From NCBI GenBank assembly GCA_949317995.1, contig OX439046.1:39716002-39780001 (forward strand): a stretch of DNA of 64,000 nucleotides. Direction: 5' to 3'. Source of the stretch: Acholoe squamosa. Taxonomy: Eukaryota > Annelida > Polychaeta > Phyllodocida > Polynoidae. Made by a program: the position numbers and the translations under genes. Shown in pieces: positions 852 through 61,248 of this stretch (positions are counted from its first letter, which is position 1; each line of letters opens with the position of its first letter). The notes under the pieces are model-generated. The model was given only the letters and a program-made list of their open reading frames with translations, was not told where the DNA came from and did no database searches.

Positions 852-852
852 A

Positions 853-23141: not shown

Positions 23142-23518
23142 TGTAAGGGTTTGTGGCCTTACGGACCTGGGGGGTTCGGGTCTTACGATTCGGAAAGAAA
23201 GAGTAAGACAGTATTCCAAGTGTATGCCAACGGTTAGGTTTATTACTTAATGCACACTCACGGCTGCCGAATGATATCAAAGGGGCAGCTAATATTAAAA
23301 GACAGTGGTTTACATAGTGTGGAGGCCAGAAGGGCCTCTGACGTAGCGGCTGAGCCCTGGGCTTTATATACGGACCCAGGTGTTCGTCGTCAGATGTCCC
23401 CACAGACCCGGATCGGTGCTGCCACCTATCCGGAACCTGAGGAACGTCCGACGACTCGACTCACCCGCCACGTCAGACGGTACCCAACTCCTATGGTTTA
23501 GTAAAGTGTACCTCTACA
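23142..23518 (-). repeat. 3' LTR of TE-B
   Basis: Begins TGTAAGGG and ends CCTCTACA on the plus strand, so TG...CA in either reading. On the minus strand it carries TATATAAAG (plus 23362-23370) and downstream of it AATAAA (plus 23239-23244), a plausible promoter and poly(A) signal. It is preceded on the minus strand by a purine tract. Confidence 0.93.
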
Positions 23519-25026: not shown

Positions 25027-27975
25027 TTAAACGGATTTCTTAGCATGCTTCTTCTTCAGAAGAGCTAAAGCCGACTCGGGAGTGCCGTCCCACTCGTCCA
25101 AGTCGACTCCGAACACCCTCATGAACTTAGTGTTCAGGTTGGTGTTCCGAGTGATCTCCTCCTTTACACGCTTTTCCAACACGTGTACATCCATAGCTGC
25201 TTTTTCTTGAGCAGCTGAGGCAGCCTCCTCCTGGGCCTTTACATCGTCCCGGATGAGAGTCTCGAGACGTTGCTTTTCAGCGTCGCCCACCTGTTTCATA
25301 CACAACAGAGTTTCGTTTAGGAGACCCTGATGAAACTCGATCGCTTTCTCCCGAACGGTCTTCTCCCAATGGGTGTAGATGGCCTTCTGGACATCTGCCT
25401 CCCCTTGGCGAGACTTCTCAAACCAAACTTCCGCATTACCAGTTTTAATGGTAATGGCGTCCTTCGGTTTCTCAGGTGCCGCGACAGCCTTGGGAGGAGT
25501 CGAGGCGGCCTGTGGACCACTTCCGGGTTTAGGACTCCCGGACACACCTGTCGTTGGTACACAGAAGGCAGGTGGTACATTCTGTTTCAGTCCCATTTGC
25601 AGGTACATGTTTAACTGCTCCTGGGTAAAGGTAACTGGTGGGGCGGCTGGAGCGGATGCAGATCCGGCGGCAGCAGATGCGGTGGTCTTCTTTGGCATAA
25701 GGCGACCATCCTTTCCTACCACCAAGGTCTGGCTCTCAGGTCCAGGTCCCTGGTTTAAGGACGGAAAGTTTCGAGAACTCACTTTCCCAGGTTTAGATAC
25801 GGCTCCAGCGTATCCGGCAGGTTCAGGCTTCTTGAACACCGGAGTGCCCTGAGCCTGTTCTGCGGGGTGCCTTGTCAGAGGGGACCTGGAACGGTCCTCT
25901 GCTCTGACCTTTGGTTTTGTCGTGCTCTGACCATTACCGTTGCCGCCACGGTTCTGGTCTCTCCTGCTCCTTTCACGAGCTCTCTTTGCATCCTTTCCGG
26001 ATTCCTCGCATTTCTGCCAGAGAGACTCGTGCATGTCCAATTTACCCTTTCCAGGAGTCAGGACTATCTTTGCTCGGAGTTTCGAATCCTTGGTCTTCGG
26101 AACTTCGCAGAGGACTTGGTCCCCTGGTCGGATCTTAGACCAAGCATCCTCGCTCAGGCTATCGAACTCCTTCATGAGTTCCTGATGAAGCTCCATGATG
26201 CGCTTCCGGGCCCCGTCCAAACCTTCTGCGTGGCATTTCTTCTGGTGTCTAGCCAGATCACTACGTCGGTTGTATTGCACCTTCGTAGTACACTTCTTGC
26301 CCTTCTTACCATAACTCGGATCACAAATGTAAACCGGGTGATGGTGGAAGTGGGCCTCTACCAGATGCCTTTGGAACCGGGCTGGAGTACTCCAGGTCCG
26401 GATCGAGACATCACTCGCATCCTGGCAGATAGAGAAGGGACAGGACTTTTGATCGTCACCGTACCACTTCTCTAAAGCCCAACGCAGCTTCCTCCTCTGG
26501 GTATAAGTGTAATACCCTTCGGTGTGGTTTAGCATAAGCCACATCTTTCGATAGGCTTTGCTCGGATTGGGGTCCTCGTCCGAAAGGCGCATCCAATCTT
26601 CATCATCCGACTCATCGTTCTTATTGATTGAGTCTGGACAGGCATAGAGGGTAGAGCCGTCCTTCTTAACTCCGTACGCACAGTCGGAGAAACACGTCGG
26701 GATCCGGGTTTTGAATCCGGATTTGGCGTTAGCCCAACGTTCGGCCTCGGTTTGAGTTGATGGAGTGGCCTTCTCATCATACTCAACCGAGGATTCGTGC
26801 ACCGACTCCTCGTCAGACGACTCAACCTCCATGGCAGTACTACCAGTGGTTGAGGTGCTGGGTTTCGGCTCGGCTCTCGCAGAATCCGGGAGATTCTTGA
26901 GCTTCCGAGCAGCGGATCGTCGGTTCTTACTGACCTTCCAGTCTTCCTCCGGTTCCTGGGTTCCGGATGTGCTGGAGGTCGTGGCTTCTACTGGAGTAGT
27001 AGTGCTGCCGGTAGCTGATGTAGCACTGGCGGAGCTTCTGGTGGCAAGCTTCAGGTCGGGGATAGGAGGTGCGGGTGCTTCCGCGGCCCTCTTAGCCTCT
27101 TCCTGTGCCTCCTGTTCGGCAGTCATGCGGCGGACAATAACCGTCCGAAGGGCTGCAGCTCGGTCCAATCCGATTAGTGAATTGTTCTGGACATCCACCA
27201 ATTCCTGTTCGGTTATGTAGTAACCGTCGTCCCACTGCTCAAAGTTAGCAGCGGCCTCCCGGAATTCCTTAGTGGTCCGGCACGGCGTCCGGATAGCACT
27301 AGGGCGTGGGTAGGTCTGGCCATCGGTATCCCAGACACAGCCTACCCAGTTAATGTTCGTAGCCTTGACGTTCCACAGGGACTTGTCAGGCTTCGGATAC
27401 GCTCCGAGCTCGAAGGCTCGGTTAGCTGCGTACACGGTTTCACGGAAACCGGCGTCCACCATAAGTCCCCGTTGGAACCACGGCCAGTCTCGAAGCCACT
27501 CGGGAGGCATCCTGGTCAGCTGTTCGGGAGCCATGACGCCCTCGATAGCTATCCTGACTTTCGGGTCCATCCTGACTGGTGTCCCGTCCGCGTAGGTCAC
27601 TTGTGCCTGCAGTTCCGGGTGGACATACAGGTAGCGACCATCATAACTAGCTGGAAAAGGCTCCGCCACTGCTGGCTTCCACTCATCCTTCTGTCCGTCA
27701 ACTTGGGTAGTTTCGGACTCTGTCGCTGCGGGTTCAGCACTCGCAGTCGCTCCGGATCCCTCTGCTGGGAGTGGAGATAGCAGTTTCTCTGGCTCATTGA
27801 GTGAGAATGAAGCCAGCTTCTCCTCGAACGAGCGATCCGTGGGTTCCTCCACGTCCATCATCTCGCTCTCTTCCTGTGTAACAGGCGACAAAGCTTCCGG
27901 AAAAGCTTCTGCGGACGGAGTCAGCTTATCCGGGTCACCGGATAGCTTGGCTGCAGCTACGGATTCCTCAGCCAT
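25027..27975 (-). CDS. ORF3 of TE-B: unknown zinc-finger/coiled-coil protein downstream of pol
   Basis: 982 codons from the first ATG (27973-27975, MAEESVAAA); an upstream GTG would add six residues. TE-D starts MAEEAV at the same place. Segments in order: acidic Ser/Pro/Glu-rich N-terminus; a conserved block of about residues 105-290 (YDGRYLYV ... ITEQELVDVQ); a Ser/Thr/basic linker with RSPL-type repeats; a block starting WANAKSGF at about 420; a Cys/His region at about 512-582 (CPFSIC ... FQRHLVEAH ... CDP ... CTTK ... RHQKKCH) that looks like two C2H2-type fingers; TPGKGKL; PGPESQ; a charged C-terminal coiled coil; and FGVDLDEWDGTPE near the end. No signal peptide, membrane segment or protease site is visible, so it is not an ordinary envelope gene. 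I do not recognise it. A nucleic-acid-binding or particle protein is an inference. Homologous ORFs occur in TE-C and TE-D. Confidence 0.85.
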   Translation of the reverse strand: MAEESVAAAKLSGDPDKLTPSAEAFPEALSPVTQEESEMMDVEEPTDRSFEEKLASFSLNEPEKLLSPLPAEGSGATASAEPAATESETTQVDGQKDEWKPAVAEPFPASYDGRYLYVHPELQAQVTYADGTPVRMDPKVRIAIEGVMAPEQLTRMPPEWLRDWPWFQRGLMVDAGFRETVYAANRAFELGAYPKPDKSLWNVKATNINWVGCVWDTDGQTYPRPSAIRTPCRTTKEFREAAANFEQWDDGYYITEQELVDVQNNSLIGLDRAAALRTVIVRRMTAEQEAQEEAKRAAEAPAPPIPDLKLATRSSASATSATGSTTTPVEATTSSTSGTQEPEEDWKVSKNRRSAARKLKNLPDSARAEPKPSTSTTGSTAMEVESSDEESVHESSVEYDEKATPSTQTEAERWANAKSGFKTRIPTCFSDCAYGVKKDGSTLYACPDSINKNDESDDEDWMRLSDEDPNPSKAYRKMWLMLNHTEGYYTYTQRRKLRWALEKWYGDDQKSCPFSICQDASDVSIRTWSTPARFQRHLVEAHFHHHPVYICDPSYGKKGKKCTTKVQYNRRSDLARHQKKCHAEGLDGARKRIMELHQELMKEFDSLSEDAWSKIRPGDQVLCEVPKTKDSKLRAKIVLTPGKGKLDMHESLWQKCEESGKDAKRARERSRRDQNRGGNGNGQSTTKPKVRAEDRSRSPLTRHPAEQAQGTPVFKKPEPAGYAGAVSKPGKVSSRNFPSLNQGPGPESQTLVVGKDGRLMPKKTTASAAAGSASAPAAPPVTFTQEQLNMYLQMGLKQNVPPAFCVPTTGVSGSPKPGSGPQAASTPPKAVAAPEKPKDAITIKTGNAEVWFEKSRQGEADVQKAIYTHWEKTVREKAIEFHQGLLNETLLCMKQVGDAEKQRLETLIRDDVKAQEEAASAAQEKAAMDVHVLEKRVKEEITRNTNLNTKFMRVFGVDLDEWDGTPESALALLKKKHAKKSV

Positions 27976-28484
27976 GACTGGGGAATCGACCACGGGAGTA
28001 AACTACTCCTTTTTCCGGCTTTTACGGCGCCGGGGCCGGCACAAACGGAGTCTGTCTACCAGGAGACAGACTCTGGAGGAGCAGCGGGGGGTTTGCTTAG
28101 CCGGTAAAATCCAAGAAGGGAGCGAGCTCGACCGTCTTGGACGTTACCGAAAACAAATATGGCGACAGGCCAGCTTTCGTGACGTCATTTCCCCGCGGTC
28201 CGCGAGGTCACGAGAGGTCAGCCGAGACTGGACACGGTGACGTCATGCGGAAACGCACGTGCTACAGGCGGTACATCAACAAACTGATTGTTTTTAGGTA
28301 ATTATCGCTCACCCCGATGACTCGACTGGGGATTTAAGTGGAGATTATGGAAAGCTTAAGCAAATCCACCGGATTATCCGTCCACTACCCATTGGTACAT
28401 CATGCGGGGGCGACAAATAAGCCTTTAGGGTCAGTTGTCATCCGTTCCTCTAAATGTAAACATTACACTCGTTGTGTATACAGG

Positions 28485-31400
28485 TTAGGTCACTGCAGTC
28501 CTCTGGGCAATTCGGGGGCTGCGGCGAACGTATCTCCCCTTCTCGGATAGTTCTTTATCGGACCTGACAGTCTGAAGAGCTTTCTCTAGGTGCTTCTTAG
28601 CCTTAGAAACACCTTTCCTCTTCTTTTTGTCTTCACCTGCCGAGACTTTTTTAACTCCCCCACGCTTAATCGGTGTTGGCGTGGGTGTTACTGATTCGGA
28701 ACACTTTTTGGGTCTACCCTGACCATGCTTCACTGTAGTGTTCTTTACCTGGTCTATTATGCGATTCTGATTCAGGATCCTTTCGGAACCTTCACCATAC
28801 ATTTCTGTGGAGGTCTCCCTCCCAGACCATCTCCTTAATCTAGCCACATTTGACTTATAGAGTCGACCAAGGTCAGATTTAATAATTACGGTACAATCAC
28901 TGATAATTTGTGTTATAGTAAAGGGACCGTCCCAATTAGACGCTAATTTTATGTGTCTAAGTGGTTCATGTAATCTAAGGACTCTGTCTCCGGATTGGAA
29001 TTTCCGATGTTTTAGATCGGTATCGTATCCTACTTTCTGCCATTTGGCACTTTTCTCCAAATCAATTCGGACAGACTCATATGCTTTTCTAAATCTGTCT
29101 CTTAAACATTCCACAAAAACTACATGGCAAGGTAGTTCAGGGTCCATTCCTACGACTCCAAAAACTAGGTCAGCAGGCATTATCAAATCTTCTCCGAATA
29201 CTAAAAGGTTCGGAGAACAATTTGTACTTGAATGTACTGTACTATTATAAGCATGTGTCACAAAATGGCATTGCTCATCCCAGTCATCCATATGTTCATT
29301 AACGAGTGACTTTAGGACTTGGATGAGGGTTCTATTGAACCTTTCCACCAATCCGTCGCTTTGTGGTCTATACGGATTGGTTCTAGTCTTGCAAATAGCC
29401 AAGTACTCGCACATACCCTGCCAGAGATTTGATTCGAATTCTCTGCCTTGGTCACTGTGTAACATTAATGGTACACCGAAGCTTAGTACCCAACCTTTTA
29501 CAAAAGCTTCGGCACAAGTAATTGCTTTGTGGTCCGGTAGTGGAAATACTTTAGTGTATTTCGTATAATAATCACACACTACCATCATACAGGTATTATC
29601 ATTAGCGGTTGTATTAAATCCACTAATAATATCTACCCCGATTCTTGCGAATCTAACTCCGAAAAGTTCTTGGGATAGGGGAAGTTTGCCCATCCCGGGT
29701 CCGGGTTTGTTTTTACAACAATCCGGACAGGTGGTTACCCATCTTTGCAAGTCCCGTGTCATGCCAGGCCAATAGTATTTCTTGGAAAGTCGTGCTAGCG
29801 AGCGTTTCCTTCCGAAATGACCACTGCTCCGATGTCCATGACAGAAGTACATAATGTCATGTCTCATGGCATGTGGTATCACCACTTGCATGATTCTACC
29901 ACCATTATTACATGGCTTCCAACGGTATAACACGCCTTTCCGGACTTCAAGCTCGGTCCATTGAGCAAGAAACCTTCTCATTTCTCGATTTTCCAGAGAG
30001 ACCTCTGGTCTAACTGGACGTATACCCTTTGGTACTAATTGCAGTAGCTGTGCAGTTATCGAGTCAGCTTCCTGGAAATGTCGTATGTGATCCATAGACC
30101 AATCCAGTATACTGGCAACTAGGGGTACGAATGGTCTTCGAATCCCTGCTAACACTGCCTTATGAGCTCCACAATCAGTACAATCCGGATTATCACATTT
30201 CCGGATTGGTATTCGAGACAAAGCATCAGCATTTAAATGCTTAACTCCGGGTCTATGCTGAATCTGTTGATGTTCAAGCCCATATTCGGATAAATGGGCT
30301 AGCCATCGGCCTAACATGCCTTCAGCATCTCGGAAGTTCAGTAGCCACCTTAAAGAGGAATGATCCGTACGCAAAGTAAAGTTCGTTCCCCATAGAAAAT
30401 GTTTGAACTTCTTGGTATATACGACTACTGCTAACAACTCTCTTTTGGTTGTGCAGTAATTGCGCTGGGTCTTGCTCAGTGTATTGCTGGCAAAGGCAAT
30501 TGGCACTTCTCTCCCATTTTGGACTTGCGAGAGAGCTGCACCAATGCTATCATTACTAGCATCAGTATCCAGTATGAAATGATCCGTCTCATTCGGATAT
30601 TGCAATACGGGAGTACTCGTGAACAGGTCTTTTAGCTTTTGGAAAGCGGTTTCCTGTTCATGCGTCCAAGGAAATTTTTCCTTGGTACTTCCTGGAGTCC
30701 AGTTAGCTATTGCTTGTAATGGGTAACTGACTCTAGAATAATTCGGAATAAATTCCCTGTAATAGGAACAGAATCCTAAAAAGGACCTCACTTCTTTGGG
30801 TGTTTTAAGTCTATTCCAATTCGTAACTGATTCGATTTTTTCCGGATCAGCCTTTATTCCTTCATCACTGATGATGCGGCCCAAATAATTTATGGACTTT
30901 CTAAACATGTGGCATTTCTTAGGTTTCAATTTGAGACCATTTGAAATAATACGTTCTAGTACCATTTTTAGGTTATTAGAACATTCTTCGAATGTTTTTC
31001 CGAAGACAATGACATCGTCTAGATATACAAGACATCTTTTCCACAATAAATCACTTAGAATTGTTTCCATCATTGCTTCAAATGTTGCAGGTGCATTGCA
31101 CAATCCAAACGGCATTACATTATATTGAAATAATCCAATATGACTTGAAAATGCAGTTTTCTCCATATCTGAAGGGTTCATTCCCACTTGCCAATAGCCT
31201 GATTGCAAGTCTAGGGTACAAAACCAACTGTTTCCTCCTAAGGAGTCAATGGTTTCATCTATTCTCGGTAATGGATACGAATTCTTTTTCGTTATTCCAT
31301 TCAACTTCCTGTAGTCTATGCAGAAACGGATAGTACCGTCTTTTTTTGTTACCATACACACAGGACTACTCCATGGACTATTAGAAGGGACTATTACATC

Positions 31401-32720
31401 CTGTTCCAACATCTTATTTATTTCATCCTCAGCTACTCTCTTTTTTGCTAAGGGTAACCGTCTATACGGTATCTTAAAGGGTTCGGCATCCCCAGTATCT
31501 ATTTTATGTAATACCTTATTTGTCGTACCTAGTTTTTCACCAGGTTTGGCAAAGGCAGTATGATACTGACAGAGCATATCATAGAACTCTTTCCGGTGTT
31601 CCGGATCTTCTAATGAAGTTTCTTCATACAACTTAAGTAAGTCTTCCGAAATTTCATCATCTCCTGTTACCTTCTGTAAGCTTAGCTTGCTATCCGTTAC
31701 AGTTTCCGAAAGGGTCACGTTTCCAAAAACTTGTCCCTTTTTCAAGTAGATAGTAGTGTTTCCAGTATTGGAGACAGGTACTACCGACCAGGATGCATTC
31801 GCTACTATCGTGTCTACAGAATTTAATCCAATACCTGACAAAGTAACTACATCCGGTTCTATCACTGCAGGTTTGTTACGCATTGCAGGATCACTTCTTA
31901 CAAGCACATCACAGGCTACTCCCGGAGGGATTCGCACAGTGTGTGCCACACTAGCCATACTGCTCACTTGTCTCAGTGCACATCTAACCTTCACGGGGTA
32001 CGGGTATCTCACACTCAACACTCCTGTTTGGGGTTCCAATACAGCACCATACAGGGATGCGAAATCTAACCCGAGTATCCCCTCATCTGCTATATCCGCA
32101 ACGGTGGCGCTCATGACATAGTCATGTATACCATCTAACTGTAGTCTCACACAAGTTCTACCATACGTTTGCAAGGTACTGCCGTCGGCCGTCTGAGCAC
32201 TTCCTCCCGATTTGAGAGTATCATGTTCATCCGGTATAAGGTCGTAGAACCCCTTGGAGATACAAGAGTGGCTAGCTCCCGTATCCACAAGGAATTCGGC
32301 AGACCTTCCGTTAACAGTAAGGCAAACATACCACCGCCTTCCGTTTAGAACAGAGGGCATGTCCGTGACAATCGGAACGTCATTTTTCACACCAGGAGTC
32401 AATCCACATCCTTTTAAGAATTCCAGACAAGGATGACCCGGGGGCAGGTGGGCACCACAGACCTTGGCTAACGAATAGCCGCCTGCCTCGTTACTGATAT
32501 TGGGTTTCCCCTGTGCTCCCATAGCACCTGTTATATCAGCTTCCCTAACCTTCCGGGTGTCTACAACCACCTCGGTGTTAGGCGATCTTGTTACTTCATG
32601 TGAACTATCATCACGGATGGTGATATCATGGCAAGATTTGTCACTGGGATCCCCTTCTTTGCCCCTCGGGAGACCCCTCCTTAGTTTTCCTCTGTACTTA
32701 CTCCAGAGACACTCTCCTGT
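28485..32720 (-). CDS. pol: Pol polyprotein of TE-B (protease, RT, RNase H, integrase)
   Basis: The frame is open from 32720, overlapping the end of gag by 40 nt in the -1 frame; there is no ATG near its start, so it is probably made as a Gag-Pol fusion. Domains in order: aspartic protease with LVDTGASHSC (near 32280); reverse transcriptase with CIDYRKLN, LDLQSGYWQV, MPFGLCNAPATF and the catalytic YLDD (31014-31025); RNase H with LDTDASNDSIGAAL, TKRELLAVV, RTDHSSLRW and LNADALSR; an integrase HHCC finger (FCHGHRSSGHFG ... CPDCCKNK); and the integrase D-D-E core (IGVDII, LHSDQGREFE, DGLVERFNRT). A basic tail carries GRPKK and ends RRSPRIAQRTAVT. No chromodomain is visible. All catalytic residues are present, so the enzyme should be functional. 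About 1,411 residues. Confidence 0.95.
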   Translation of the reverse strand, partial: TGECLWSKYRGKLRRGLPRGKEGDPSDKSCHDITIRDDSSHEVTRSPNTEVVVDTRKVREADITGAMGAQGKPNISNEAGGYSLAKVCGAHLPPGHPCLEFLKGCGLTPGVKNDVPIVTDMPSVLNGRRWYVCLTVNGRSAEFLVDTGASHSCISKGFYDLIPDEHDTLKSGGSAQTADGSTLQTYGRTCVRLQLDGIHDYVMSATVADIADEGILGLDFASLYGAVLEPQTGVLSVRYPYPVKVRCALRQVSSMASVAHTVRIPPGVACDVLVRSDPAMRNKPAVIEPDVVTLSGIGLNSVDTIVANASWSVVPVSNTGNTTIYLKKGQVFGNVTLSETVTDSKLSLQKVTGDDEISEDLLKLYEETSLEDPEHRKEFYDMLCQYHTAFAKPGEKLGTTNKVLHKIDTGDAEPFKIPYRRLPLAKKRVAEDEINKMLEQDVIVPSNSPWSSPVCMVTKKDGTIRFCIDYRKLNGITKKNSYPLPRIDETIDSLGGNSWFCTLDLQSGYWQVGMNPSDMEKTAFSSHIGLFQYNVMPFGLCNAPATFEAMMETILSDLLWKRCLVYLDDVIVFGKTFEECSNNLKMVLERIISNGLKLKPKKCHMFRKSINYLGRIISDEGIKADPEKIESVTNWNRLKTPKEVRSFLGFCSYYREFIPNYSRVSYPLQAIANWTPGSTKEKFPWTHEQETAFQKLKDLFTSTPVLQYPNETDHFILDTDASNDSIGAALSQVQNGREVPIAFASNTLSKTQRNYCTTKRELLAVVVYTKKFKHFLWGTNFTLRTDHSSLRWLLNFRDAEGMLGRWLAHLSEYGLEHQQIQHRPGVKHLNADALSRIPIRKCDNPDCTDCGAHKAVLAGIRRPFVPLVASILDWSMDHIRHFQEADSITAQLLQLVPKGIRPVRPEVSLENREMRRFLAQWTELEVRKGVLYRWKPCNNGGRIMQVVIPHAMRHDIMYFCHGHRSSGHFGRKRSLARLSKKYYWPGMTRDLQRWVTTCPDCCKNKPGPGMGKLPLSQELFGVRFARIGVDIISGFNTTANDNTCMMVVCDYYTKYTKVFPLPDHKAITCAEAFVKGWVLSFGVPLMLHSDQGREFESNLWQGMCEYLAICKTRTNPYRPQSDGLVERFNRTLIQVLKSLVNEHMDDWDEQCHFVTHAYNSTVHSSTNCSPNLLVFGEDLIMPADLVFGVVGMDPELPCHVVFVECLRDRFRKAYESVRIDLEKSAKWQKVGYDTDLKHRKFQSGDRVLRLHEPLRHIKLASNWDGPFTITQIISDCTVIIKSDLGRLYKSNVARLRRWSGRETSTEMYGEGSERILNQNRIIDQVKNTTVKHGQGRPKKCSESVTPTPTPIKRGGVKKVSAGEDKKKRKGVSKAKKHLEKALQTVRSDKELSEKGRYVRRSPRIAQRTAVT

Positions 32721-35578
32721 CTACGAGGGACAGGTTTTTCAGCCATACATTCTGGAGCATAATGCCCCAGTTTCTGGCATCTGAAACATCTCCTCTGGGA
32801 TTTGTCAACTCTCGGTCTCTTTAGAGCTTCTGTTAATCCGGCTAATAATGTTTCCATCATGTTAGTCGGAGCAACAGTGGCTGCTACAGTTGGGTTCGCC
32901 GTAGAGGCTACACTGCCAGGTTGAGTTGATCCGGAAGCTGTTTTACCAGCAACTGATCCTCCTCTCCCTCTCGAATGTACTTTCCTATACCGCTTTTGTC
33001 GGTAATATTTTCCAGCTACATGCACTGAACCAATATAATCTCCGTTTTCATCGGAGACATATTCATCATTCTCATCAACTTCATTCGATTCAACCGGAGC
33101 TAATTGGGAAGTATCGTATACCGGAGCAGGTGTACCTCCGTATTGGAATGGAGCTGCTCTTATTGGATTAGGTCCGAGACCTACCAGACGTTTCTTCATG
33201 TCATGTCCATCGATTGCTATGAACAGATCACTGAAGGAAGTGTCATCTTTCCAAGAGTCCCAGACCACTTGCTTGTGATCCGGATCACGCAATCCACTGT
33301 AGAATTGTATAAACAATTCTTGTAGATAACAATCATCATCATGAGCCCAATTTGGACGTGCTTTCGAAAGCAAGTCCTGTAGCTCCAAACCAAAGACTTT
33401 GTGTGATTCTTTAGGTTTTTGTGTCCTCTTCTTAAAGCTTACCCACGGATCTTCTCTAACGATTGATCCGAAAAGGTATGCGGCACATTCGACCAATTGA
33501 TCATAGGTACCATATATTCCGTAAGCTGCTCTCCATTGGTTGAGAGCTACTTTTCCGCCTTTATTTAACCAACAAATCAAATATGGCAGAGCTTCTTCTT
33601 TTGTCCAGCCACTACAATTGACTTCGTCAACAAAAGCTTGATACCTGTCCTTCCATGGATCATTAGAATCATATGGAGGGGGTATCCGTGCCTGCCTACG
33701 TGCCGGATTATTACATCCGCGTAGTCTATCTGCTTCTCGCATGCTCCAGTTCATGACTTCCATGCCGTCTGCTCCCTTTCGGTAGCAGTCAATGCCAAGG
33801 TTTTGTATACATTGGCTTCTATCAAAGATGGTTTGCATCCCTGCAGGCATAGAAGTTCTCCTGTTAGGTTTCCTGCCATCTCCTCCTGATCCTGATCCTC
33901 CGAATCCGGATCCTCCTGGGCCGCCTGGAGGGTTTCCTCCTGGTGGACCATTATTATTATAGCCTCCAGATGAACCACCAGGGTATCCACTATTGTGACC
34001 GGTGTTTCCAGAAGAAGCATATCTAGGGTAAGAATCATTTTGATTCCATCCCTGGTTATAGCTATTACCATTCTGATAATTGCCACTTCCCGATGGATTA
34101 TAATTATTTCTATATCCATAGGAAGATGTTCTCGGTTGGTACGTACCGCCGTTGATATTGTTTTGTGGCGGATTTGGTCTCGGAAAACGTCCATCAGTAG
34201 GACCATTACCAGAACCTGGGGGTGGATTCGGTAATCTTGGTACTGCTGGTGTACTGTGGCCGGGTTGGGGGAAATATGAAGGTGGTGTCAACATATGTCT
34301 CATTGGTCCGGGTGCTCTTGGTTGTGCCACGGGTGAATTATTATTATTCCCTGTAGCACCATCGTGAGTCGCTTTGATTTTGTGACTCAAATCTGGTATG
34401 GGTGGTGCTGGTCCTATCGTATCCAGCATTGGAACTACTGGTTTAGATGCGGTTCCATTTACTGCAGCATTATCCGGTTTCTTATAGATTCCGGATACCA
34501 CATTCTTGTCAGCCCCATCATCAACGAATGGGCTGTATCTAATTGGGGTTGCATCTTTAGATGTCTTTCCCAACATTGTAGATACCACAGCTGGGTCTAT
34601 ATTACCTATAGTTAACTGAGCTGCTTCTACATATTTATCTAGAGTTATTGCAGTGGCCTGCAATTCCTGAAGCTCATTCGTGAGTTTCTGTCTATCCTCC
34701 TCCAGTTGTTTGTTGTAAGCTATGATGCCTACCCGGATGGTTTCATTATCTTCAGCTTGTTTACTGCACTGAAGTTTCAATTTATCCAACTCCTCCTGAT
34801 AATGGCGAATTTCGGATTCGAATTTTGTCTTATCAAGGTTTAGTTGGTCGTTCGTATCTATGTATGTTTGGATACGAATGTGCCTATTATCATATTCTTT
34901 ATTGAATGAATCTCTCATAGATTGAAGTTTTAGTTCTTCACTCTCGAGTTCTTTCATGTACTCGCTCCTTCTGGCTTCGAATTCCTTTCGCATGCCAGTT
35001 AGGTCCTCTTCCATTTGAAGTTTTTCATGCAATACTTCATCCTTAGCTTTGACCAAGGTATTTAAATTCTCGTTCAAAGTTACATAAGTTTCATTCAACA
35101 ACAGGACATCCGGTCGTTTTAATTCTTCACCTTCCGGTACCGCATAGGTTAAGTCGCCATCTATAGCGCTATAATCTAATATTGGTAATTCGGGTCTGGG
35201 TAACCTATAAGGTAGTTCTCCGAATGTTACCCTTTTTCGCATTGGTGCCGGATGTTCTGGGTTAGTACTACCACCGACTTCGAACATCGAATCACATAAT
35301 TCGTCAACAATTGAATGCTGGCCTATTAAGTTACTATGTCTCTGTATGGACTGTTCGCGTCGTACAGAGTCTGGCAGATTCTCTTCACTATCATTATAGT
35401 GGGGTCCGGGATCTCTCCAGGATGCTGATTCTGCATCTTGTGAGTCCGAATGGGCTTGGAGCATTAGCGATCCATTTCCATTCTCTTGGGCAAGTGATTG
35501 CCCTGCTGGGTTAGCTTCCCTAAGGGTGTCTAACCCATGTACTAGCCGTTCGGACGTTATAACGTCCGGGCTATACAC
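32681..35578 (-). CDS. gag: Gag polyprotein of TE-B (coiled coil, capsid-like region, zinc knuckle)
   Basis: About 965 residues. Order: an acidic N-terminal part; a long coiled coil at roughly residues 152-335; a Pro/Gly/Asn-rich flexible linker (about 390-580); a capsid-like helical region (about 590-800, NLGIDCYRKG ... EALPYLICWLNKGG ... SYRDPD-like parts); and one CCHC zinc knuckle (CFRCQKLGHYAPEC, about residue 930), the usual RNA-binding motif of Gag. There is no ATG near the 5' end. The first in-frame ATG is at 35464, yet the preceding 38 codons are conserved in TE-A. The frame opens at 35620. A CTG at 35579-35581 has A at -3 and G at +4 and is a candidate start. The coiled coil is unusual for a Ty3/gypsy Gag and may drive oligomerisation (inference). 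The frame ends TAA at 32681-32683 just after a likely frameshift site. Confidence 0.85.
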   Translation of the reverse strand: MYSPDVITSERLVHGLDTLREANPAGQSLAQENGNGSLMLQAHSDSQDAESASWRDPGPHYNDSEENLPDSVRREQSIQRHSNLIGQHSIVDELCDSMFEVGGSTNPEHPAPMRKRVTFGELPYRLPRPELPILDYSAIDGDLTYAVPEGEELKRPDVLLLNETYVTLNENLNTLVKAKDEVLHEKLQMEEDLTGMRKEFEARRSEYMKELESEELKLQSMRDSFNKEYDNRHIRIQTYIDTNDQLNLDKTKFESEIRHYQEELDKLKLQCSKQAEDNETIRVGIIAYNKQLEEDRQKLTNELQELQATAITLDKYVEAAQLTIGNIDPAVVSTMLGKTSKDATPIRYSPFVDDGADKNVVSGIYKKPDNAAVNGTASKPVVPMLDTIGPAPPIPDLSHKIKATHDGATGNNNNSPVAQPRAPGPMRHMLTPPSYFPQPGHSTPAVPRLPNPPPGSGNGPTDGRFPRPNPPQNNINGGTYQPRTSSYGYRNNYNPSGSGNYQNGNSYNQGWNQNDSYPRYASSGNTGHNSGYPGGSSGGYNNNGPPGGNPPGGPGGSGFGGSGSGGDGRKPNRRTSMPAGMQTIFDRSQCIQNLGIDCYRKGADGMEVMNWSMREADRLRGCNNPARRQARIPPPYDSNDPWKDRYQAFVDEVNCSGWTKEEALPYLICWLNKGGKVALNQWRAAYGIYGTYDQLVECAAYLFGSIVREDPWVSFKKRTQKPKESHKVFGLELQDLLSKARPNWAHDDDCYLQELFIQFYSGLRDPDHKQVVWDSWKDDTSFSDLFIAIDGHDMKKRLVGLGPNPIRAAPFQYGGTPAPVYDTSQLAPVESNEVDENDEYVSDENGDYIGSVHVAGKYYRQKRYRKVHSRGRGGSVAGKTASGSTQPGSVASTANPTVAATVAPTNMMETLLAGLTEALKRPRVDKSQRRCFRCQKLGHYAPECMAEKPVPRRQESVSGVSTEEN
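32684..32690 (-). promoter_or_regulatory. Candidate -1 ribosomal frameshift site between gag and pol (TE-B)
   Basis: Minus-strand GGAAAAC directly precedes the gag stop (TAA), and pol is open in the -1 frame across it. About six bases further on, a G-rich arm can pair with GGGATCCC downstream to form a bulged hairpin. TE-D has the same heptamer at the same place. It is not a perfect X-XXY-YYZ slippery site, so the exact mechanism is open. Confidence 0.55.
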
Positions 35579-35602: not shown

Positions 35603-35603
35603 G

Positions 35604-35980
35604 TGTAAGGGTTTGTGGCCTTACGGACCTGGGGGGTTCGGGTCTTACGATTCGGAAAGAAAGAGTAAGACAGTATTCCAAGTGTATGCCAACGGTTAGG
35701 TTTATTACTTAATGCACACTCACGGCTGCCGAATGATATCAAAGGGGCAGCTAATATTAAAAGACAGTGGTTTACATAGTGTGGAGGCCAGAAGGGCCTC
35801 TGACGTAGCGGCTGAGCCCTGGGCTTTATATACGGACCCAGGTGTTCGTCGTCAGATGTCCCCACAGACCCGGATCGGTGCTGCCACCTATCCGGAACCT
35901 GAGGAACGTCCGACGACTCGACTCACCCGCCACGTCAGACGGTACCCAACTCCTATGGTTTAGTAAAGTGTACCTCTAGG
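35604..35980 (-). repeat. 5' LTR of TE-B
   Basis: Identical by eye to the 3' LTR (23142-23518) for 375 bp. At the outer edge the last two bases are GG where the other copy has CA. TATA-like and AATAAA motifs are in the same positions as in the other LTR. Confidence 0.92.
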
Positions 35981-43320: not shown

Positions 43321-46300
43321 TTAACTGTATTTGCCTACATCTGTCTCCATCATCGTTTCCCCAGAATGGGTTTCCGGATCGGAGTCCAAACTGATCAGGT
43401 TATGGACCACTGGTGTTTGGACAGGGGTTGTGGCTACCGTGGCTGCTTCGGGGGTAGAGGCTGGCATGTCGGTTTGTCTAGTCGGGGTGACAATCGGGGC
43501 AGCAGTGGCGCCTTCGGACTCCCTTTCGGGTCCGGTTGGTGGCGCACCTGCACTGGCGGAGGCTCTCGGGGTGGCCATGCTAGTGAATCCAAAGGATTCG
43601 ATGTCCGCCTCGAGCTGTCTAGCCTCCTGCAGCTTGGCCTGGAGCTTTTCGAAGGCACTCTCGGCAGTCCTGAAGCTGCGACTCATACTTCAGCTTCATG
43701 GCCTTGGCCTCGTTCTCACGTTGAAGCGAGGCCCGAAGCTGGTCCCTCGCCTGTCCCTGCATGTCCTGTGAGATTCGGGCGATTTCTCGCCGCTGAATCT
43801 CGTGCAGACATTCGAACACGCCTTCGGTGACACCTCGAAGGTAGCCGGTGGCCTGGCTGATGTGTCGTTCCTGCCACGCCTGGAAGACGTCGGCCTGAAT
43901 ATCACAGGATTCCTGTGTCCGGTTCCTGATGTAGTCATCGGGGTCCTCCAGCTCGAAGTTAGATTTCACTAAATGTAACACATTGGTGGTCTTCATGTTT
44001 CATGCTGGAGGGGTCGGCACGGGGGTCGTCTGAGTATCAGAACCGCTCTCATAGGCGGAGCTCGAAGTGGCAGTGGCGCTCGGGGATGGGGTAGCAGTGT
44101 TGGTCCGTCGAGACGACCCAACTAACGCTCCACTCTCATCTATGGTCAGGCCTCGGCCCCTACCAACCTCGGGGAGAGGTTGACTGGGGTTTTTCAAAAC
44201 AAGTTCACGCCCGGGTCGCTTCGGGTCCACAGGTCGGACCCGCCCTCGAGAGGAAGCAGTAGCAGGAGCACCCGGGGGACCCATTGGCTTTGGTTTCCCT
44301 GAAGGCAATAGGGTCTGGGACTCGGGGCCTGGTGTCTGGGTTTCAGACAGAGTGGGGAACTCGTCTGGTTCGGCCGACTGTGCCTTGAGTCTGGCGAGCA
44401 AGGCGTCCTCCTCTGGAGTGCCCTGGTACCGAAGGGTAGACCCAGAGTGACCTGCAAACCAGTCAGAATGTGAGAGGGTGTTCCGTCCCTCGAACCAGGT
44501 CTGGTGGTTACCAGTCGAGGTCCCTGCTACAGGTCGAGCTCAGGGGCAAGACATGCTCAAGGCTCGAGGGGTCTCGGGATGTAGCGCCCGCGATCGTGGT
44601 AGGATCGGGGGACCTCTTCTTATGTTCAGGAGCTGGGGCTGGAGACTGTGACTCCAACCTTGGCCGCTTGGCGTCCCGTCAGGGGTCGCTACCGGGGTGT
44701 GGTCGGGGTCTTCCATGACGGTCGACCGTGTCGGGATCTCTCCTCTGGACTTTGACACGCCAGTGCATTTCGGCAGACATGTCAAATCAGTGAGAACGCA
44801 CGTTCTTGAGGAAGTAGGCGTCCTGCTTCCCCTCGACCGTGTGGCAAAGGTGGTCGGTCCTCATGGTGATGTTCAATCTCTCCTCGGAGGTCATCTGGTC
44901 CCACTTCGACATAAGTCGTTCGTGGAGTTTCAGGGCCTTGAGTCGAGCATAGCTGGCTTTGAGACCATGGACCTGAGCTAAGTGCTTGGCCATGCGTCCC
45001 CGCCTTGTGGTTCTCAGCCCTTGGCATTTCTTGTTCTCATTCTTCTCATTGGAAGGCCAGACTCTCTCAGTCTCTGCGGCATTGACGCAGATCTCGAACG
45101 GGCAGGTCGGGTTTGAGGGTGTCCAGCTCGAAGCGGCATACTGCAGCTTCGTCCGGTGTTCGAAGCCATAGTAAGACTTAGGCGTCTTAACTGTGCTTCC
45201 GAGTGAGGCTATCCACACGCGATAGAATTTCGTGGGGCCAGAGTCCTTCTTCAGGATTTTCATCCATTCCTCGTTGTAACTATCGGCGTCGCGATTGGTG
45301 GCGGGAGGAATCGAATAGCTGTCAGTGTGACGCTGACAGTCCATGAAACATTTCGGGGTATAATCCGGGAATCCGGTTTGGGCGTTGACCCACTTATTTA
45401 AACAGGTCTCGTCAGGGGCGTCCCCCAGGGGTTCCTCCAACGAGTCGATGTTTTCCAGCAGGTGCCGGCTCATTTCGGCAACCTGCCGGTCACGGTCTCC
45501 ATTACCTTCTTCCTGGATCTCTTCCTCCTCGACAGCAGTGCTACTGACGGGCTCGGGGGCAAGAGGGGTCGTTCTTCGAGAAGGTCTCGTCTGGGTAGAT
45601 CTTGAGGGGGATGGGGCGTCCTCCTCCTTTGTGGTTTTACCACTCCGGGTTCGACTCCGCGAGCTTCGAGACGAAGTCGAGGCTGCGGAGTCGTCGCTCT
45701 CTTCGGCTTTCTCCTCTACCACCTTCTTCTTACGGCGGCTCGATTTAGGCTTCGCTTCGGGTTTGTCCGTGGACTCCTTCTTGGCTTTCTCTACCTCCTT
45801 CTTTAGTTTCGACTTGCGCTTCATTAAGTCTTTGCGCACACGTTCAATGGCCTCTTGACGGGCGTCAAGCTCCTCGAGGCTCATTTCCTTGGCGGTGTTT
45901 ACCTTGGTGGAGTAGCAAGCTCCACCCTCAAGGCTCGAGGCAGCTTCAGGGATCTTACTGGCCACGTCTCCATCGCGAGCGGTCTTGTTGGCCATTCTCT
46001 GCTCTTCTTTCTCGAGCTCGGGGTCCGCCAACAAAGCGTCTTCTTCCTCACGAAAAGGAGAGTTCTTCTGCGAGTCAGACATGAACGCGTAGGTGCATTC
46101 TTGGGGTGGTCCTTGTGGGAGGAGGACTTCGCGGGAGTGGATGCTGGGAAGGCGCTCCTCGAACCCGATTGGGCCATACAGCAGGGGGTACGCTGTCTGT
46201 GACCTAATTCGGTCGTCCTCGCAGATGGCGTCAACAACAGCAACTAGGCCATCGCTGATGCACATCGCTTCGGCCAGTCCGAAATAGTTTTCGAACCAGA

Positions 46301-46671
46301 TGTCGGAAACGTCAGTGACTCCGGTGTCGGTGCATCCACGGCAGATCCTAGATTGTAAATCGTAGGGTATCAGCCGTGGAGGTTCGCCTTTAAGGCCCAG
46401 GTACTTTGGGGGGCAGTACCGGTACTTGGACGATGACTGAAGGGGTGGTTCCTTCAGTCGTACTCGGGCGTGGGGTCCTCGGGGCAATCAGTTCTGCACC
46501 TCTCGGGATGCTCAGGGTGTCTGGAGCCGTTTCGGGGATAGATGACTCCATTTCGGTGGTGTCCATTAGTTCCACTACTGGACTTCGGGGTGCCTCGTCT
46601 TGGGCTCGAAGTGGAGTCGGGTGTCCTTCGGGGTTGGCCATTATGGTCGCCATCACCTCCGACTGAGCCAT
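43321..46671 (-). pseudogene. ORF3 of TE-C, broken by frameshifts and a stop
   Basis: Starts MAQSEVMATIM at 46671 (compare MAEESV and MAEEAV in TE-B and TE-D). It changes frame at about 46440-46490, then has a long open part (46487-44787), another shift near 44790, an in-frame TGA at 44000-44002 and a last shift near 43620-43690. It keeps the family marks: WVNAQTGFPDYTPKC, CPFEIC, RMAKHLAQVHG (finger region, about 44950-45100), PGPESQT and the C-terminal coiled coil (EIQRREIARIS). The FGV-WDGTPE motif of the other two is not seen; instead a Ser/Thr/Pro tail follows. One Lys/Glu/Ser-rich linker (KSKLKKEVEKAKKE) is longer than in TE-B. It is strongly CpG-rich compared with the flanks. Confidence 0.75.
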
Positions 46672-47209
46672 ATTTCGGGCTCAGACGGCTCAGGGGGTTA
46701 TCCTCCTTCGTTCAAGGAACAGAAGGAGTCAATGGCAGTCAGCTGAGAAGAACTATGTCACTATAAGTGGCAGAGAAAACAGCGGCACGTCTTACCTCGG
46801 TAAGACGGTTCGCGTGCTGTGAGCTATATTAGAGGCACAACAAGCGATGCGGAACCATTGCGCATGCGCCACTGCACTGCGCCACTCCGACATTCCGCTC
46901 CCTAGCACCCCCTTCCCGCTCGTGGCAGGCGTCCGTACTACCCCGGATAACCAGGGGTCGGGGTTGGTTTTCTCCATAGGCCGTTGGTGGACTTACCCCC
47001 TCCGCTACTCATATCAACATGAGTTCGGCAGAATAACATGTAGCATCATGCGTACACGTCAGCCAAGCTGTCTGCCACCCACAGGAACCATGAGTAGGGT
47101 GGTAATGTCCGGCGTGGTCGTATTTCGAATCGTACTCGAGGTATCTCAACCTCCAAACACATAACAAGACACATAAACAGGACAATACACACGTTGTGAT
47201 TTCGGAACA
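46672..47209 (-). other. Spacer between pol and ORF3 of TE-C
   Basis: 538 nt without coding. It contains an NRF1-like palindrome TGCGCATGCGCC (46859-46870). A CTTCTCAG acceptor-like site on the minus strand lies about 70 nt upstream of the ORF3 ATG. Spacer length is similar in TE-B (about 510) and TE-D (about 554). Confidence 0.4.
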
Positions 47210-48059
47210 TTAAGTAACGGCAGTCCGCCCGGCAATTCTGGGACTGCGTATCACCTCTCTTCCTTTGTTGTTCAACTGAGATTCTCGAGAAGGTCCAGTG
47301 GAACGTGCCAACGCTTTCCCCCTACCTCGAGTTCTCCATTCCACCGAGACAATTTTATCACAATTAGATTTTAAATTTGTGTCAGTTTCGACCTTTCGGG
47401 GTCGTCCTCTCTTCGGCTTTTTCTCATTCGCCACTTTAGCAGGTCGGCCTCTTCTCCTTTTCGGGGCCATACCCTTCGTTTTTCTCGACAATTTGTTGGT
47501 CTTCATTAGGATCTCGTCCTTCTGCTCGTTCATCTGTTTGGAAATTTCCTCACACTCGGAGTTGGCGGCATCTCGTCCTCTCCATTTCCTCAACCTACAC
47601 ACGTTAGACTTATTCATGCGGCCTGTAGCTAGACTCATAAGCATAACGGTGCTCTCAGATATAATTCGGGTGACCACCGTCCCAGCTCGAAATCAGTTTC
47701 TTGCACCTTAAAGGTTCATGCATCCTAAACACTCGGTCGCCCACACTGAATTGCCATGGCTTTAGGTGGGTATCATACCCAACTTTTTGCCAATTCGCGT
47801 TCTTTAGTAGTTCATTTCGAACTACTTCATAAGCTCTCTTAAATTGGTCTCGCAGAGACTCTACAAACATTACAGTACATGGGGCTTCGGGGCTTACCCC
47901 TATAACACCATATACAAGATCAGCTGGCATTATGATGTCCTCCCCAAATACTAACAAATTCGGGGAGCAGTTTGTTGCGGCGTGCACAGTGCTATTGTAA
48001 GCATGTACCACGAAGTCACATTGTTTGTCCCAATCATCCTGGCAAGAATTTACCAAGGG
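47210..48059 (-). pseudogene. pol: pol 3' end of TE-C: integrase C-terminal half and basic tail
   Basis: Continues from 61249 across the TE-D insertion. It reads DDWDKQCDFVVHAYNSTVHA, SPNLLVFGEDIIMPADLVYG, then NWQKVGYDTHLK and SSWDG, as in TE-B. A one-base frameshift at about 47660-47680 follows. The tail has two AT-hook-like cores (RRRGRPAK and KRGRPRK) and ends RSPRIAGRTAVT, matching the ends of TE-B and TE-D Pol. Confidence 0.85.
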
Positions 48060-48476
48060 TGTAGGGGTATGGTATTTTACACTTTAACGTTCATGTACCC
48101 GTGAGACTCAGACCTAGGTCCTTCGGGTGTGGTGGGGGAATCTGGATGGCAGGTGGCAGCACCTGCCTCTGGGTTCGTATCCATTACACCAGGGGGCCTA
48201 CCACTCGTCCGCCACACGTCACGTGGCCGGTCTGAGTTTCGCGGGCTTTTCCCCTATATAAGGCTGGTCCTAGCCCAGGTTCCTCAGTAGTGGTTTACCC
48301 ACTGCTCAACCAGGTTGTTACCCAAAAGGGTAACCGAATGCCCTAGTAGCATGTAGTCCTCTGAGGCTGTGATCGTATGTAACACAAGCTATGAAATAAA
48401 AGCTCGGTTGCCTACCCGGAAACTTTTCTCTCTCTTCGTTATGATTTAATCTAACTTAACGAGACGAACCATTACA
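48060..48476 (+). repeat. 5' LTR of TE-D
   Basis: TGTAGGGG ... CCATTACA, 417 bp. TATATAAG at 48255-48262 and AATAAA at 48395-48400 are likely promoter and poly(A) signals. No sequence match to the TE-B LTR beyond the ends. Confidence 0.95.
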
Positions 48477-48477
48477 C

Positions 48478-48492
48478 TGGTGCCGTGACCAG
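48478..48492 (+). promoter_or_regulatory. Primer-binding site of TE-D
   Basis: TGGTGCCGTGACCAG, one base after the LTR. Identical to TE-A and TE-B although the LTRs are unrelated in sequence. Confidence 0.8.
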
Positions 48493-48519
48493 TTGGTCTT
48501 CGGGTAAGCGCAGTCAGAA

Positions 48520-55271: not shown

Positions 55272-55825
55272 CCTGTTAACACAACGAGTGTGTTGTCCTG
55301 TACTGTGTACTGTTATATGTTGTAACCTAGTTCAATGTATATTTGAGCCGGTCATGAGTTTCTGGAAAAGGCCCTATGACAATGTACCCATGGTTTTGGA
55401 CGGATAATCCGGTGGATATGCTTATGCTATCCATAAACTCCATAATACCTAGCGAGTTGTCATAGTTGAACCCTGAGTACGGACGAACGACCGATCAGGT
55501 ATTGTATTGTTTTTATGTAAGGGCGCTTGACCTAATTAAGGGCACGCGGGAAAGTTGTCGACCCATTTTCGAATGGTCACGTGAGGCGCCGGTTTGATCA
55601 TGCGCAGCGATTCAAGTTCGAGTATCCCCCCATATTGTCTTATTCCTGCAAAGGAAGAAGACGTGGCCGAGGGTGGTCTTACTCTTGTTGGAGTCTGATA
55701 GCCCGTGACAGCCATATTCCGAGGTGTGCCCTCGTTAAAAGGCACCCGCCTTTCACTGGGTAAGCAGTACTTACTGCTTATCCGGTGAATTGGGATATTT
55801 TATCCCCGAACAGCCACTTCTGTCG
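55272..55825 (+). other. Spacer between pol and ORF3 of TE-D
   Basis: 554 nt, non-coding. It holds an E-box TCACGTGA (55577-55584), a CATGCGCA half NRF1-like site (55599-55606) and an acceptor-like TTTTATCCCCGAACAG shortly before the ORF3 ATG. It could be an internal promoter or the site of splicing for an ORF3 mRNA (inference). Confidence 0.4.
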
Positions 55826-60831: not shown

Positions 60832-61248
60832 TGTAGGGGTATGGTATTTTACACTTTAACGTTCATGTACCCGTGAGACTCAGACCTAGGTCCTTCGGGT
60901 GTGGTGGGGAAATCCGGATGGCAGGTGGCAGCACCTGCCTCTGGGTTCGTATCCATTACACCAGGGGGCCTACCACTCGTCCGCCACACGTCACGTGGCC
61001 GGTCTGAGTTTCGCGGGCTTTTCCCCTATATAAGGCTGGTCCTAGCCCAGGTTCCTCAGTAGTGGTTTACCCACTGCTCAACCAGGTTGTTACCCGAAAG
61101 GGTAACCGAATGCCCTAGTAGCATGTAGTCCTCTGAGGCTGTGATCGTATGTAACGCAAGCTATGAAATAAAAGCTCGGTTGCCTACCCGAAAACTTTTC
61201 TCTCTCTTCGTTATGATTTAATCTAACTTAACGAGACGAACCATTACA
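60832..61248 (+). repeat. 3' LTR of TE-D
   Basis: 417 bp. Differs from the 5' LTR at about five positions, e.g. CCCAAAAGGG versus CCCGAAAGGG and AACACAAG versus AACGCAAG. TATATAAG at 61027-61034; AATAAA at 61167-61172. Confidence 0.95.

What the first reader, a model, noticed from the sequence alone, without database searches (positions are those of the whole stretch)
25027..27975. A third large ORF downstream of pol, conserved in three Ty3/gypsy families, with a zinc-finger/coiled-coil protein of unknown function
Seen: TE-B (25027-27975), TE-C (43321-46671) and TE-D (55826-59439) each carry a same-strand ORF 510-555 nt after pol. They share a start (MAEESV, MAEEAV, MAQSEV), a W(A/V)NA block, a CPFxxC ... 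RHLVEVH/KHLAQVH Cys-His region, PGPE(S/M)Q and a C-terminal coiled coil; TE-B and TE-D also share TPGxGKL and FGV--D-WDGTPE. Established: the slot after pol in Ty3/gypsy is usually empty or holds env. Here no signal peptide, membrane span or furin-type site is visible. Inference: this is a lineage-specific accessory protein under purifying selection, perhaps binding nucleic acid.
Basis: partly seen in the sequence, partly recalled or inferred. Interest (0 to 1): 0.92.

Follow-up and report, generated by a model that had tools for sequence, protein, structure and literature searches.

The report
Third gene in animal Ty3/gypsy retrotransposons
A family of jumping genes in an animal genome carries, besides the usual two genes, a third gene kept intact by selection that encodes a protein with two zinc fingers and a coiled coil, next to a conserved folded RNA, which together look like an unrecognised device for handling the element's own RNA in the nucleus.

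Summary
Three Ty3/gypsy families in the window carry a same-strand ORF 509-554 nt after pol. Only TE-B's is intact here, but open copies of all three exist elsewhere in the 1.48 Gb genome. The protein (982-1225 aa) has no significant Pfam or NCBIfam match, nor (TE-B only) a PDB match. It has two C2H2-type fingers with unusual spacing, a C-terminal coiled coil, disordered linkers and no clear env hallmark. It is under purifying selection: dN/dS 0.13 against neighbouring TE-A, 0.10-0.17 among nine TE-C copies. A fourth ORF3 of the same plan, with a homologous finger core, follows pol in a related element, L054. New here: the pol-ORF3 spacer is itself constrained and carries a CACAACGAGT box and a roughly 50-nt RNA three-way junction, backed by compensatory changes between families, though a TE-C-only model missed the other families. 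I propose a nuclear RNA-handling (export or packaging) module analogous to CERV of Cer1 and to Rev/RRE; homology to those was not tested and function is inference. Novelty: a new ORF3 type in a known slot.

The parts
25027..27975 (-). TE-B ORF3, intact, 982 aa from MAEESV; the element's third gene
   Evidence: purifying selection; 46 of 46 scored copies elsewhere open and identical in protein (the tool scored 46 of 13,484 candidates, the best only, so this set is biased)
26230..26442 (-). two C2H2-type fingers of TE-B ORF3 (P0001 residues 521-591: C521-x4-C526-x19-H546-x4-H551 and C560-x10-C571-x14-H586-x4-H591)
   Evidence: all eight ligands invariant in B, C and D open copies; in the 8-row core alignment one stop-bearing copy (L032) has Tyr at H551; homologous core in L054
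25114..25416 (-). long C-terminal helix / coiled coil of TE-B ORF3 (P0001 residues 863-963)
   Evidence: AlphaFold, the most confident part (ten-residue mean pLDDT 62-86 over 871-960) of an otherwise low-confidence model
27976..28484 (-). TE-B pol-ORF3 spacer, constrained non-coding (81% identical to TE-A, 421 of 520)
   Evidence: synonymous-site differences in the flanking genes 57% (ORF3) and 36% (pol)
28335..28389 (-). RNA three-way junction, TE-B copy
47025..47079 (-). RNA three-way junction, TE-C copy
55392..55446 (+). RNA three-way junction, TE-D copy (outer stem only 4 bp)
43321..46671 (-). TE-C ORF3, frame-broken here; open copies (1182 codons) elsewhere in the genome
55826..59439 (+). 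TE-D ORF3, frame-broken here; open copies elsewhere in the genome (44 of 52 scored places, the window's included, have no stop in the matched stretch)
28485..32570 (-). TE-B pol (protease, RT, RNase H, integrase)
32681..35578 (-). TE-B gag, with zinc knuckle
23142..23516 (-). TE-B 3' LTR
   Evidence: 375 bp, identical to 5' LTR
35604..35978 (-). TE-B 5' LTR
48059..61248 (+). TE-D, whole element with LTRs 48059-48476 and 60831-61248 (98.8% identical), nested in TE-C

Best explanation
SHOWN: ORF3 is a real, selected third gene of a Ty3/gypsy lineage. It encodes a large protein with two C2H2-type fingers, disordered linkers and a C-terminal coiled coil, and it follows a constrained spacer that carries a conserved box and an RNA fold supported by compensatory changes. 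INFERRED: ORF3 is an RNA-handling regulator that acts in the nucleus. It would oligomerise through its coiled coil, bind the full-length element RNA through its fingers (the junction being the likeliest docking site), and carry that RNA past nuclear retention for export, translation and packaging. ORF3 itself would be made from a spliced or internally started short RNA that lacks the junction, so the signal would mark full-length RNA only.
For: [quoted passage not shown] Purifying selection. No clear env-like features: greatest 19-residue Kyte-Doolittle mean 0.67 (B), 0.96 (D), 1.16 (L054), 1.66 in TE-C, borderline. Junction: unsupervised RNAalifold on 27 distinct spacer stretches (1 B, 1 A, 7 D, 18 C) found outer stem and first hairpin, 6 of 13 predicted pairs having changes on both sides. 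95.6% of 270 cells pair, covariation score 0.467 against 0.203 in shuffles (0 of 500 reach it), slid versions at most 47.4% paired. B, D and two of three C variants fold alone to the three-way form. The L054 spacer allows the same geometry, starting 166 nt after pol, at practically its lowest energy; 2 of 60 shuffles of that spacer had any such form. CACAACGAGT box in B, C, D and L054. The spacer diverges far less than synonymous sites. Precedent: CERV of Cer1, in the same slot, is nuclear and required for export of genomic RNA (PMC10309623, passages).
Against: No binding, localisation or RNA data. C2H2 fingers more often bind DNA (recalled). Two of the five measures do not exceed shuffles (pairs changed on both sides 6 against 5.2, 185 of 500; pair types 10 against 10.4, 439 of 500), and the double changes mostly separate B/D from C, so they are few events. 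RNAalifold did not recover the second hairpin. A covariance model from TE-C alone found neither TE-B/TE-D nor L054, and the mixed model R1 did not find L054 either. TE-A and one C variant fold without the first hairpin; L054's printed lowest-energy form also lacks it. Forms of the same class occur elsewhere in the elements (one other in TE-B, one in TE-D, four in L054). The junction is not the strongest local fold and within TE-C is no more conserved than the rest of the spacer (0.080 against 0.081). Splice acceptors before ORF3 score no better than shuffles (p 0.19-0.66). B has only one strong basic cluster, at its C terminus.
Confidence: 0.4

Rival explanations
1. ORF3 is a DNA-binding regulator: it acts on the element's LTR or on chromatin as a transactivator or anti-silencing factor, in the manner of foamy-virus Tas (recalled), and the constrained spacer is its internal promoter.
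For: Two C2H2-type fingers; the Foldseek matches listed first are C2H2 DNA-binding domains, none with E <= 0.001. Spacer CpG observed/expected 0.92-1.10 against 0.34 for window 5-20 kb. TGACGTCA occurs twice in the B spacer (read, not tested statistically).
Against: The spacer's best-supported feature is a base-paired fold kept by compensatory change, which suits RNA better than promoter DNA. No transcription start data.
Confidence: 0.3
2. ORF3 is a structural partner of Gag: its coiled coil and fingers help assemble the particle or package RNA in the cytoplasm, with the junction as a packaging signal.
For: Coiled coil; Gag also has a long coiled-coil-like N-terminal part by eye; the junction would be confined to full-length RNA if ORF3 is spliced.
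Against: Gag already has a CCHC knuckle, and most Ty3/gypsy elements assemble without an ORF3 (recalled).
Confidence: 0.2
3. ORF3 is a highly diverged envelope gene.
For: It sits in the env slot; such slots often hold env-like genes (PMC5408684, PMC7264820, passages). TE-C has one borderline hydrophobic stretch (1.66).
Against: No clear membrane span in the other three, no significant family match, zinc-finger ligands conserved instead.
Confidence: 0.04
4. ORF3 is a captured host gene or passenger without function in the element.
For: Higher GC (55%) than pol (43%) in TE-B.
Against: dN/dS 0.10-0.17 between diverged copies; same gene in three families and, by its finger core, in L054.
Confidence: 0.03

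Closest known systems
CERV of the Ty3/gypsy element Cer1 (C. elegans), PMC10309623
   Same: Large ORF between pol and 3' LTR, not env, no obvious homology outside nematodes, predicted coiled-coil part, Cys-rich region, highly divergent between species (passages read).
   Different: 517 aa against 982-1225 aa; CERV's Cys region is described as possible C4, here two C2H2-type fingers; CERV's first exons share the gag frame, here not shown. No sequence comparison with CERV was made. The passages I read named no structured RNA target for CERV.
ORF3 types of bdelloid rotifer LTR retrotransposons (env, GDSL, DEDDy, CC, TM), PMC5408684
   Same: Same slot; the paper says ORF3s are typically separate transcriptional units expressed from spliced messages (passages).
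   Different: The types with assigned domains are enzymes, membrane or fusion proteins; the words 'zinc finger' and 'C2H2' do not occur in that paper's main text.
Additional ORFs of plant Ty3/gypsy elements (Retand TRP28, Grande GENE23), PMC11963269, PMC7264820
   Same: Lineage-wide extra gene between pol and 3' LTR, proposed nuclear or DNA-binding role (passages).
   Different: Those are antisense (Retand's with a TRP28 domain); this one is sense and has no significant Pfam match.
[quoted passage not shown]
   Same: Structured RNA proposed to mark unspliced RNA for export (principle as told in PMC10309623).
   Different: No sequence or structural kinship shown; no Rfam family but one tRNA matched in the searched stretch. 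Works-like only, as a hypothesis.

Membership tests
Ty3/gypsy LTR retrotransposon (host element) | Two LTRs flanking gag and pol | tested here: met
Ty3/gypsy LTR retrotransposon (host element) | Pol order protease-RT-RNase H-integrase | tested here: met
Ty3/gypsy LTR retrotransposon (host element) | Gag with CCHC knuckle | tested here: met
   zf-CCHC E=0.00082, 19.8 bits against a cut-off of 20.8, so just under the curated cut-off; visible
Retroviral or baculoviral-type envelope | Membrane span / fusion protein homology | tested here: not met
   (TE-C has one borderline hydrophobic stretch, 1.66)
C2H2 zinc finger | Conserved Cys2His2 ligands | tested here: met
   3 of 3 open copies; one broken copy lost H551; spacing not canonical
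C2H2 zinc finger | Match to a Pfam C2H2 model | tested here: not met
CERV (Cer1) | Slot between pol and 3' LTR, not env | tested here: met
CERV (Cer1) | Sequence homology to CERV | not tested
   CERV sequence was not fetched or typed
CERV (Cer1) | Spliced mRNA | tested here: inconclusive
   acceptor scores not above shuffles
CERV (Cer1) | Nuclear protein needed for genomic RNA export | not testable with these tools
   needs cells
Rev/RRE-like module | Conserved structured RNA in the element | tested here: met
   against it: two measures,
Rev/RRE-like module | Protein binds that RNA | not testable with these tools
   needs binding assay

The most novel reading that the evidence does not exclude
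A lineage of animal Ty3/gypsy elements independently evolved a self-contained protein-RNA export module: a zinc-finger/coiled-coil ORF3 that recognises an RNA three-way junction between pol and ORF3, a retrotransposon counterpart of Rev/RRE, kept while the protein core diverged almost beyond recognition and present in elements of more than one host.
Probability: 0.25. Interest if true: 0.82.

Novelty: new variant of a known kind. Interest (0 to 1): 0.62.

Why it matters
Many LTR retrotransposons have an extra ORF in the env position, and in most cases, says PMC10309623 (passage), its homology is unclear and its function unknown. Here one such gene is shown to be under selection in highly copied families, is tied by position to a conserved RNA fold, and makes a testable prediction (protein binds fold, full-length RNA leaves the nucleus). 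If right, regulated export of full-length RNA by an element-coded protein would be a recurrent invention of Ty3/gypsy elements rather than a peculiarity of Cer1 and complex retroviruses.

Tried and rejected
Protein searches: P0001 (residues 380-990) and the three-family alignment A1 against 5.8 billion proteins gave nothing at E <= 0.01. This is weak evidence of absence: only about 8,000 candidates were scored each time, the candidate step may be swamped by low-complexity words, and the same database holds pol relatives of up to 68% identity over 98% of the query. Core alignment A2 in viral contigs and genome contigs: no relative. Pol in viral contigs: none. Sub-threshold family hits that I take for chance: DUF1818 E=0.012 (TE-C), DUF4729 E=0.7 (TE-D core), FlgJ E=0.029 (TE-B), PDB 4rzp E=1 (TE-B).

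Structure: both AlphaFold jobs were low-confidence (mean pLDDT 38 and 47). Foldseek on the core gave no match at E <= 0.001, the top ones being C2H2 domains at E 0.5 or more.

L054 homology: a full-length B+C+D profile did not find it in the six-frame set at E <= 10 with default filters. The core profile with filters off ranked it first (20.8 bits; best of 3000 local-composition shuffles 8.2), and hhalign gave probabilities of 51% and 83%. The C-terminal profile alone was not significant (18 shuffles scored higher), so the shared FG..WDG ending rests on the eye. A scan with loose criteria was dropped because 15 of 30 shuffles passed; one search replaced it.

Junction: covariance model R1 was trained with a one-column misplacement of the second hairpin in B and D, so its scores for those are not independent, and it did not find L054. 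R2 (TE-C only) is the fair test and failed to find B, D or L054. In L010, a decayed relative, the R1 match (E 0.13 in the set of 23 sources, 0.0036 in L010 alone) lacks the outer stem and the RNA does not fold well (z +1.07), and no ORF3 was detected. In one search's strict scan, A and D spacers gave no hit (D outer stem 4 bp; A first hairpin broken), while hits of the class also fell at other places. Rows left out of the junction alignment: loci whose spacer did not match my anchor pattern or was identical to a row already taken (L046 is one that is absent). Internal promoter, splice acceptors and box pairing were looked at without a significant result.

Selection: 9 of the 21 other TE-C loci and 10 of the 19 other TE-D loci held were given.

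Papers: seven answered searches (one search was about the host). No listed title or start of abstract described this gene in animal Ty3/gypsy elements; apart from listings I read passages of PMC10309623, PMC6431247, PMC8556966, PMC5408684, PMC11963269 and PMC7264820, none in full.
Full report
1. What is there. The window lies in a 1.48 Gb eukaryote genome. Its COX1 reads with TGA as Trp and looks like that of an annelid or other lophotrochozoan (my recollection, not tested). TE-B is an intact Ty3/gypsy element on the minus strand with 375-bp LTRs that are identical, a gag ORF with a zinc knuckle, a pol ORF with protease, RT, RNase H and integrase, and the third ORF. TE-D (plus strand) is inserted in the integrase of TE-C (minus strand). 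The third ORF begins 509 (B), 538 (C) and 554 nt (D) after pol.

2. More than chance. TE-B ORF3 matches TE-D (E 2e-44) and TE-C (E 1e-20) by tblastn against the window alone. In the genome, 46 of 46 scored TE-B ORF3 copies are open and identical in protein, and the 8 that I compared differ from the window copy at 2-12 nucleotide sites. That set is biased, since the tool scored only the best 46 of 13,484 candidates. Of 52 scored TE-D places (the window's included), 44 have no stop in the matched stretch. TE-C has many copies with an open frame of 1182 codons (its table is cut).

3. Selection. TE-A, the element at the window's left edge, was chosen by place, not by score. Against it TE-B gives dN/dS 0.129 in ORF3 (95% interval 0.102-0.159; 910 codons), 0.151 in gag and 0.145 in pol. 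Nine TE-C copies (of 21 others held) against one open copy give 0.10-0.17, seven of them at dS 0.38-0.98. Ten TE-D copies (of 19 others held) give 0.19-0.76, the values of 0.41 and above at dS below 0.02, where changes after insertion dominate. These C and D sets were drawn from protein-ranked lists, which favours low dN. ORF3 evolves as a gene, though faster in amino acids than pol: TE-B and TE-D are 69% identical in the aligned pol piece and about 30% in the ORF3 matches.

4. Anatomy of the protein. Residues 521-551 and 560-591 of P0001 form two Cys2His2 units with unusual Cys spacing; the ligands are invariant in open copies of the three families, while one stop-bearing TE-C copy has lost one (L032). 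No Pfam C2H2 model reports them. AlphaFold is confident only for the long C-terminal helix (863-963) and moderately for the second finger and the helices after it. No membrane span is evident: the greatest hydrophobicity is 0.67, 0.96 and 1.16 in B, D and L054, and a borderline 1.66 in TE-C. Clear basic clusters occur in C, D and L054, in B only at the C terminus.

5. A relative elsewhere. A scan of genome contigs with a pol alignment found 18 loci. The best, L054, is a contig filed under a Calditrichota MAG but plainly a retroelement, with pol 50% identical in the best segment. After pol it has a 1058-codon open frame of the same plan: acidic start, basic repeats, SDDE.W motif, two fingers, coiled-coil-like part and FG....WDG. 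The finger core is homologous by profile (20.8 bits against 8.2 for the best of 3000 shuffles; hhalign probability 51% and 83%); a whole-length profile with default filters missed it, and the C-terminal profile was not significant. The next locus, L055, has no such ORF, and none of the 17 other loci gave a match at E <= 10 with the four-family profile. That L054 comes from another host is inference from its source.

6. The spacer. Between TE-B and TE-A it is 81% identical (421 of 520), while synonymous sites differ by 57% in ORF3 (360 of 636) and 36% in pol (296 of 827). Twelve TE-C copies diverge in it from the reference copy by 2-15%, also far below synonymous divergence of the farther copies. 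All four families keep CACAACGAGT soon after pol, and the decayed relative L010 keeps most of it.

7. The RNA three-way junction. RNAalifold on 27 distinct spacer stretches (MAFFT alignment, not fitted to structure) predicted 13 pairs, among them a 6-bp outer stem and a 4-bp hairpin with a 3-nt loop, six pairs having changed on both sides; it did not recover the second hairpin, which MAFFT sets one column off between B/D and C. Counting the ten pairs of the first two helices gave 95.6% of 270 cells paired and a covariation score of 0.467 against 0.203 for shuffles, none of 500 reaching it; sliding partners by 1-3 columns dropped pairing to 18-47%. Two of the five measures did not exceed shuffles: pairs with double change (185 of 500) and number of pair types (439 of 500). 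Most of the double changes separate B/D from C, so they are few events. Folded alone, B, D and two of three C variants give outer stem, first hairpin and second hairpin; A and the third C variant lose the first hairpin. L054's spacer allows the same geometry, starting 166 nt after its pol stop:'s windows at the lowest energy, while the exact stretch has a lowest-energy form without the first hairpin and a centroid with it. 2 of 60 shuffles of that spacer held any such form, and 9 of 240 over four spacers; in the same scan the spacers of A and D gave no hit, and other places in TE-B (one), TE-D (one) and L054 (four) did. A covariance model from TE-C alone did not find B, D or L054, the mixed model did not find L054, and the junction is not the most stable local fold. 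No Rfam family matches it.

8. How it most likely works. Shown: a selected gene, its domains, the constrained spacer and the fold's compensatory changes. Inferred: nuclear action, binding of the fold by the fingers, oligomerisation by the coiled coil, export or packaging of full-length RNA, and ORF3 expression from a shorter RNA lacking the fold. The closest precedent is CERV of Cer1, in the same slot, nuclear and required for export of genomic RNA (PMC10309623, passages). I did not compare sequences with CERV, so this is 'works like', not 'is a'. The main rival is a DNA-binding transactivator or anti-silencing factor.

9. Verdict. The slot is well known (PMC5408684, PMC7264820, PMC11963269, PMC6431247, passages). 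The protein type and its companion RNA fold appeared in none of the titles and abstract starts that my searches listed, nor in the passages read. A survey of polychaete LTR retrotransposons (PMC8556966, passages) has no occurrence of 'additional ORF', 'third ORF' or 'envelope' in its main text.

Noticed in passing
window 48059-61248: TE-D is nested inside the integrase of TE-C, which resumes at about 61247.
   Followed up: partly
window 1-1189 and L009: TE-A, an older relative of TE-B (81-83% DNA identity in the stretches matched), runs off the left edge; its ORF3 lies outside the window in L009 and is frame-broken.
   Followed up: yes
window 16444-18959: Long array of tandem repeats (self-matches of about 71-89% at many offsets).
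   Followed up: no
window 20345-21017: Array of 21-nt repeats (CAATCCCTGTACGATCTTGTA type) with inverted parts.
   Followed up: no
window 36194-36267 (-): tRNA-Cys(GCA) gene or pseudogene about 215 nt upstream of TE-B's 5' LTR.
   Followed up: no
window 35588-35603 (-) and 48477-48492 (+): TE-B and TE-D share the same stretch right after the 5' LTR (CTGGTGCCGTGACCAG), probably a primer-binding site; a match to tRNA-His is my recollection.
   Followed up: no
window 27976-28080 (-) and the same place in TE-C and TE-D: B, C and D each have a further hairpin of different sequence within about 100 nt upstream of the ORF3 start; TE-A's is less regular.
   Followed up: partly
window 5000-20000 against TE-B: CpG observed/expected is 0.34 in this flank but 0.72-1.09 in TE-B's genes, spacer, LTR and 3' part, as expected of a recent insertion in a CpG-depleted genome.
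   Followed up: no
L054: A public Calditrichota MAG holds an animal-type retroelement contig whose two ends overlap (the 3' open frame ends with the residues that begin the 5' open frame), suggesting a circular assembly.
   Followed up: partly
window 41546-42079 (+): Fragment of a non-LTR reverse transcriptase ORF (by eye).
   Followed up: no
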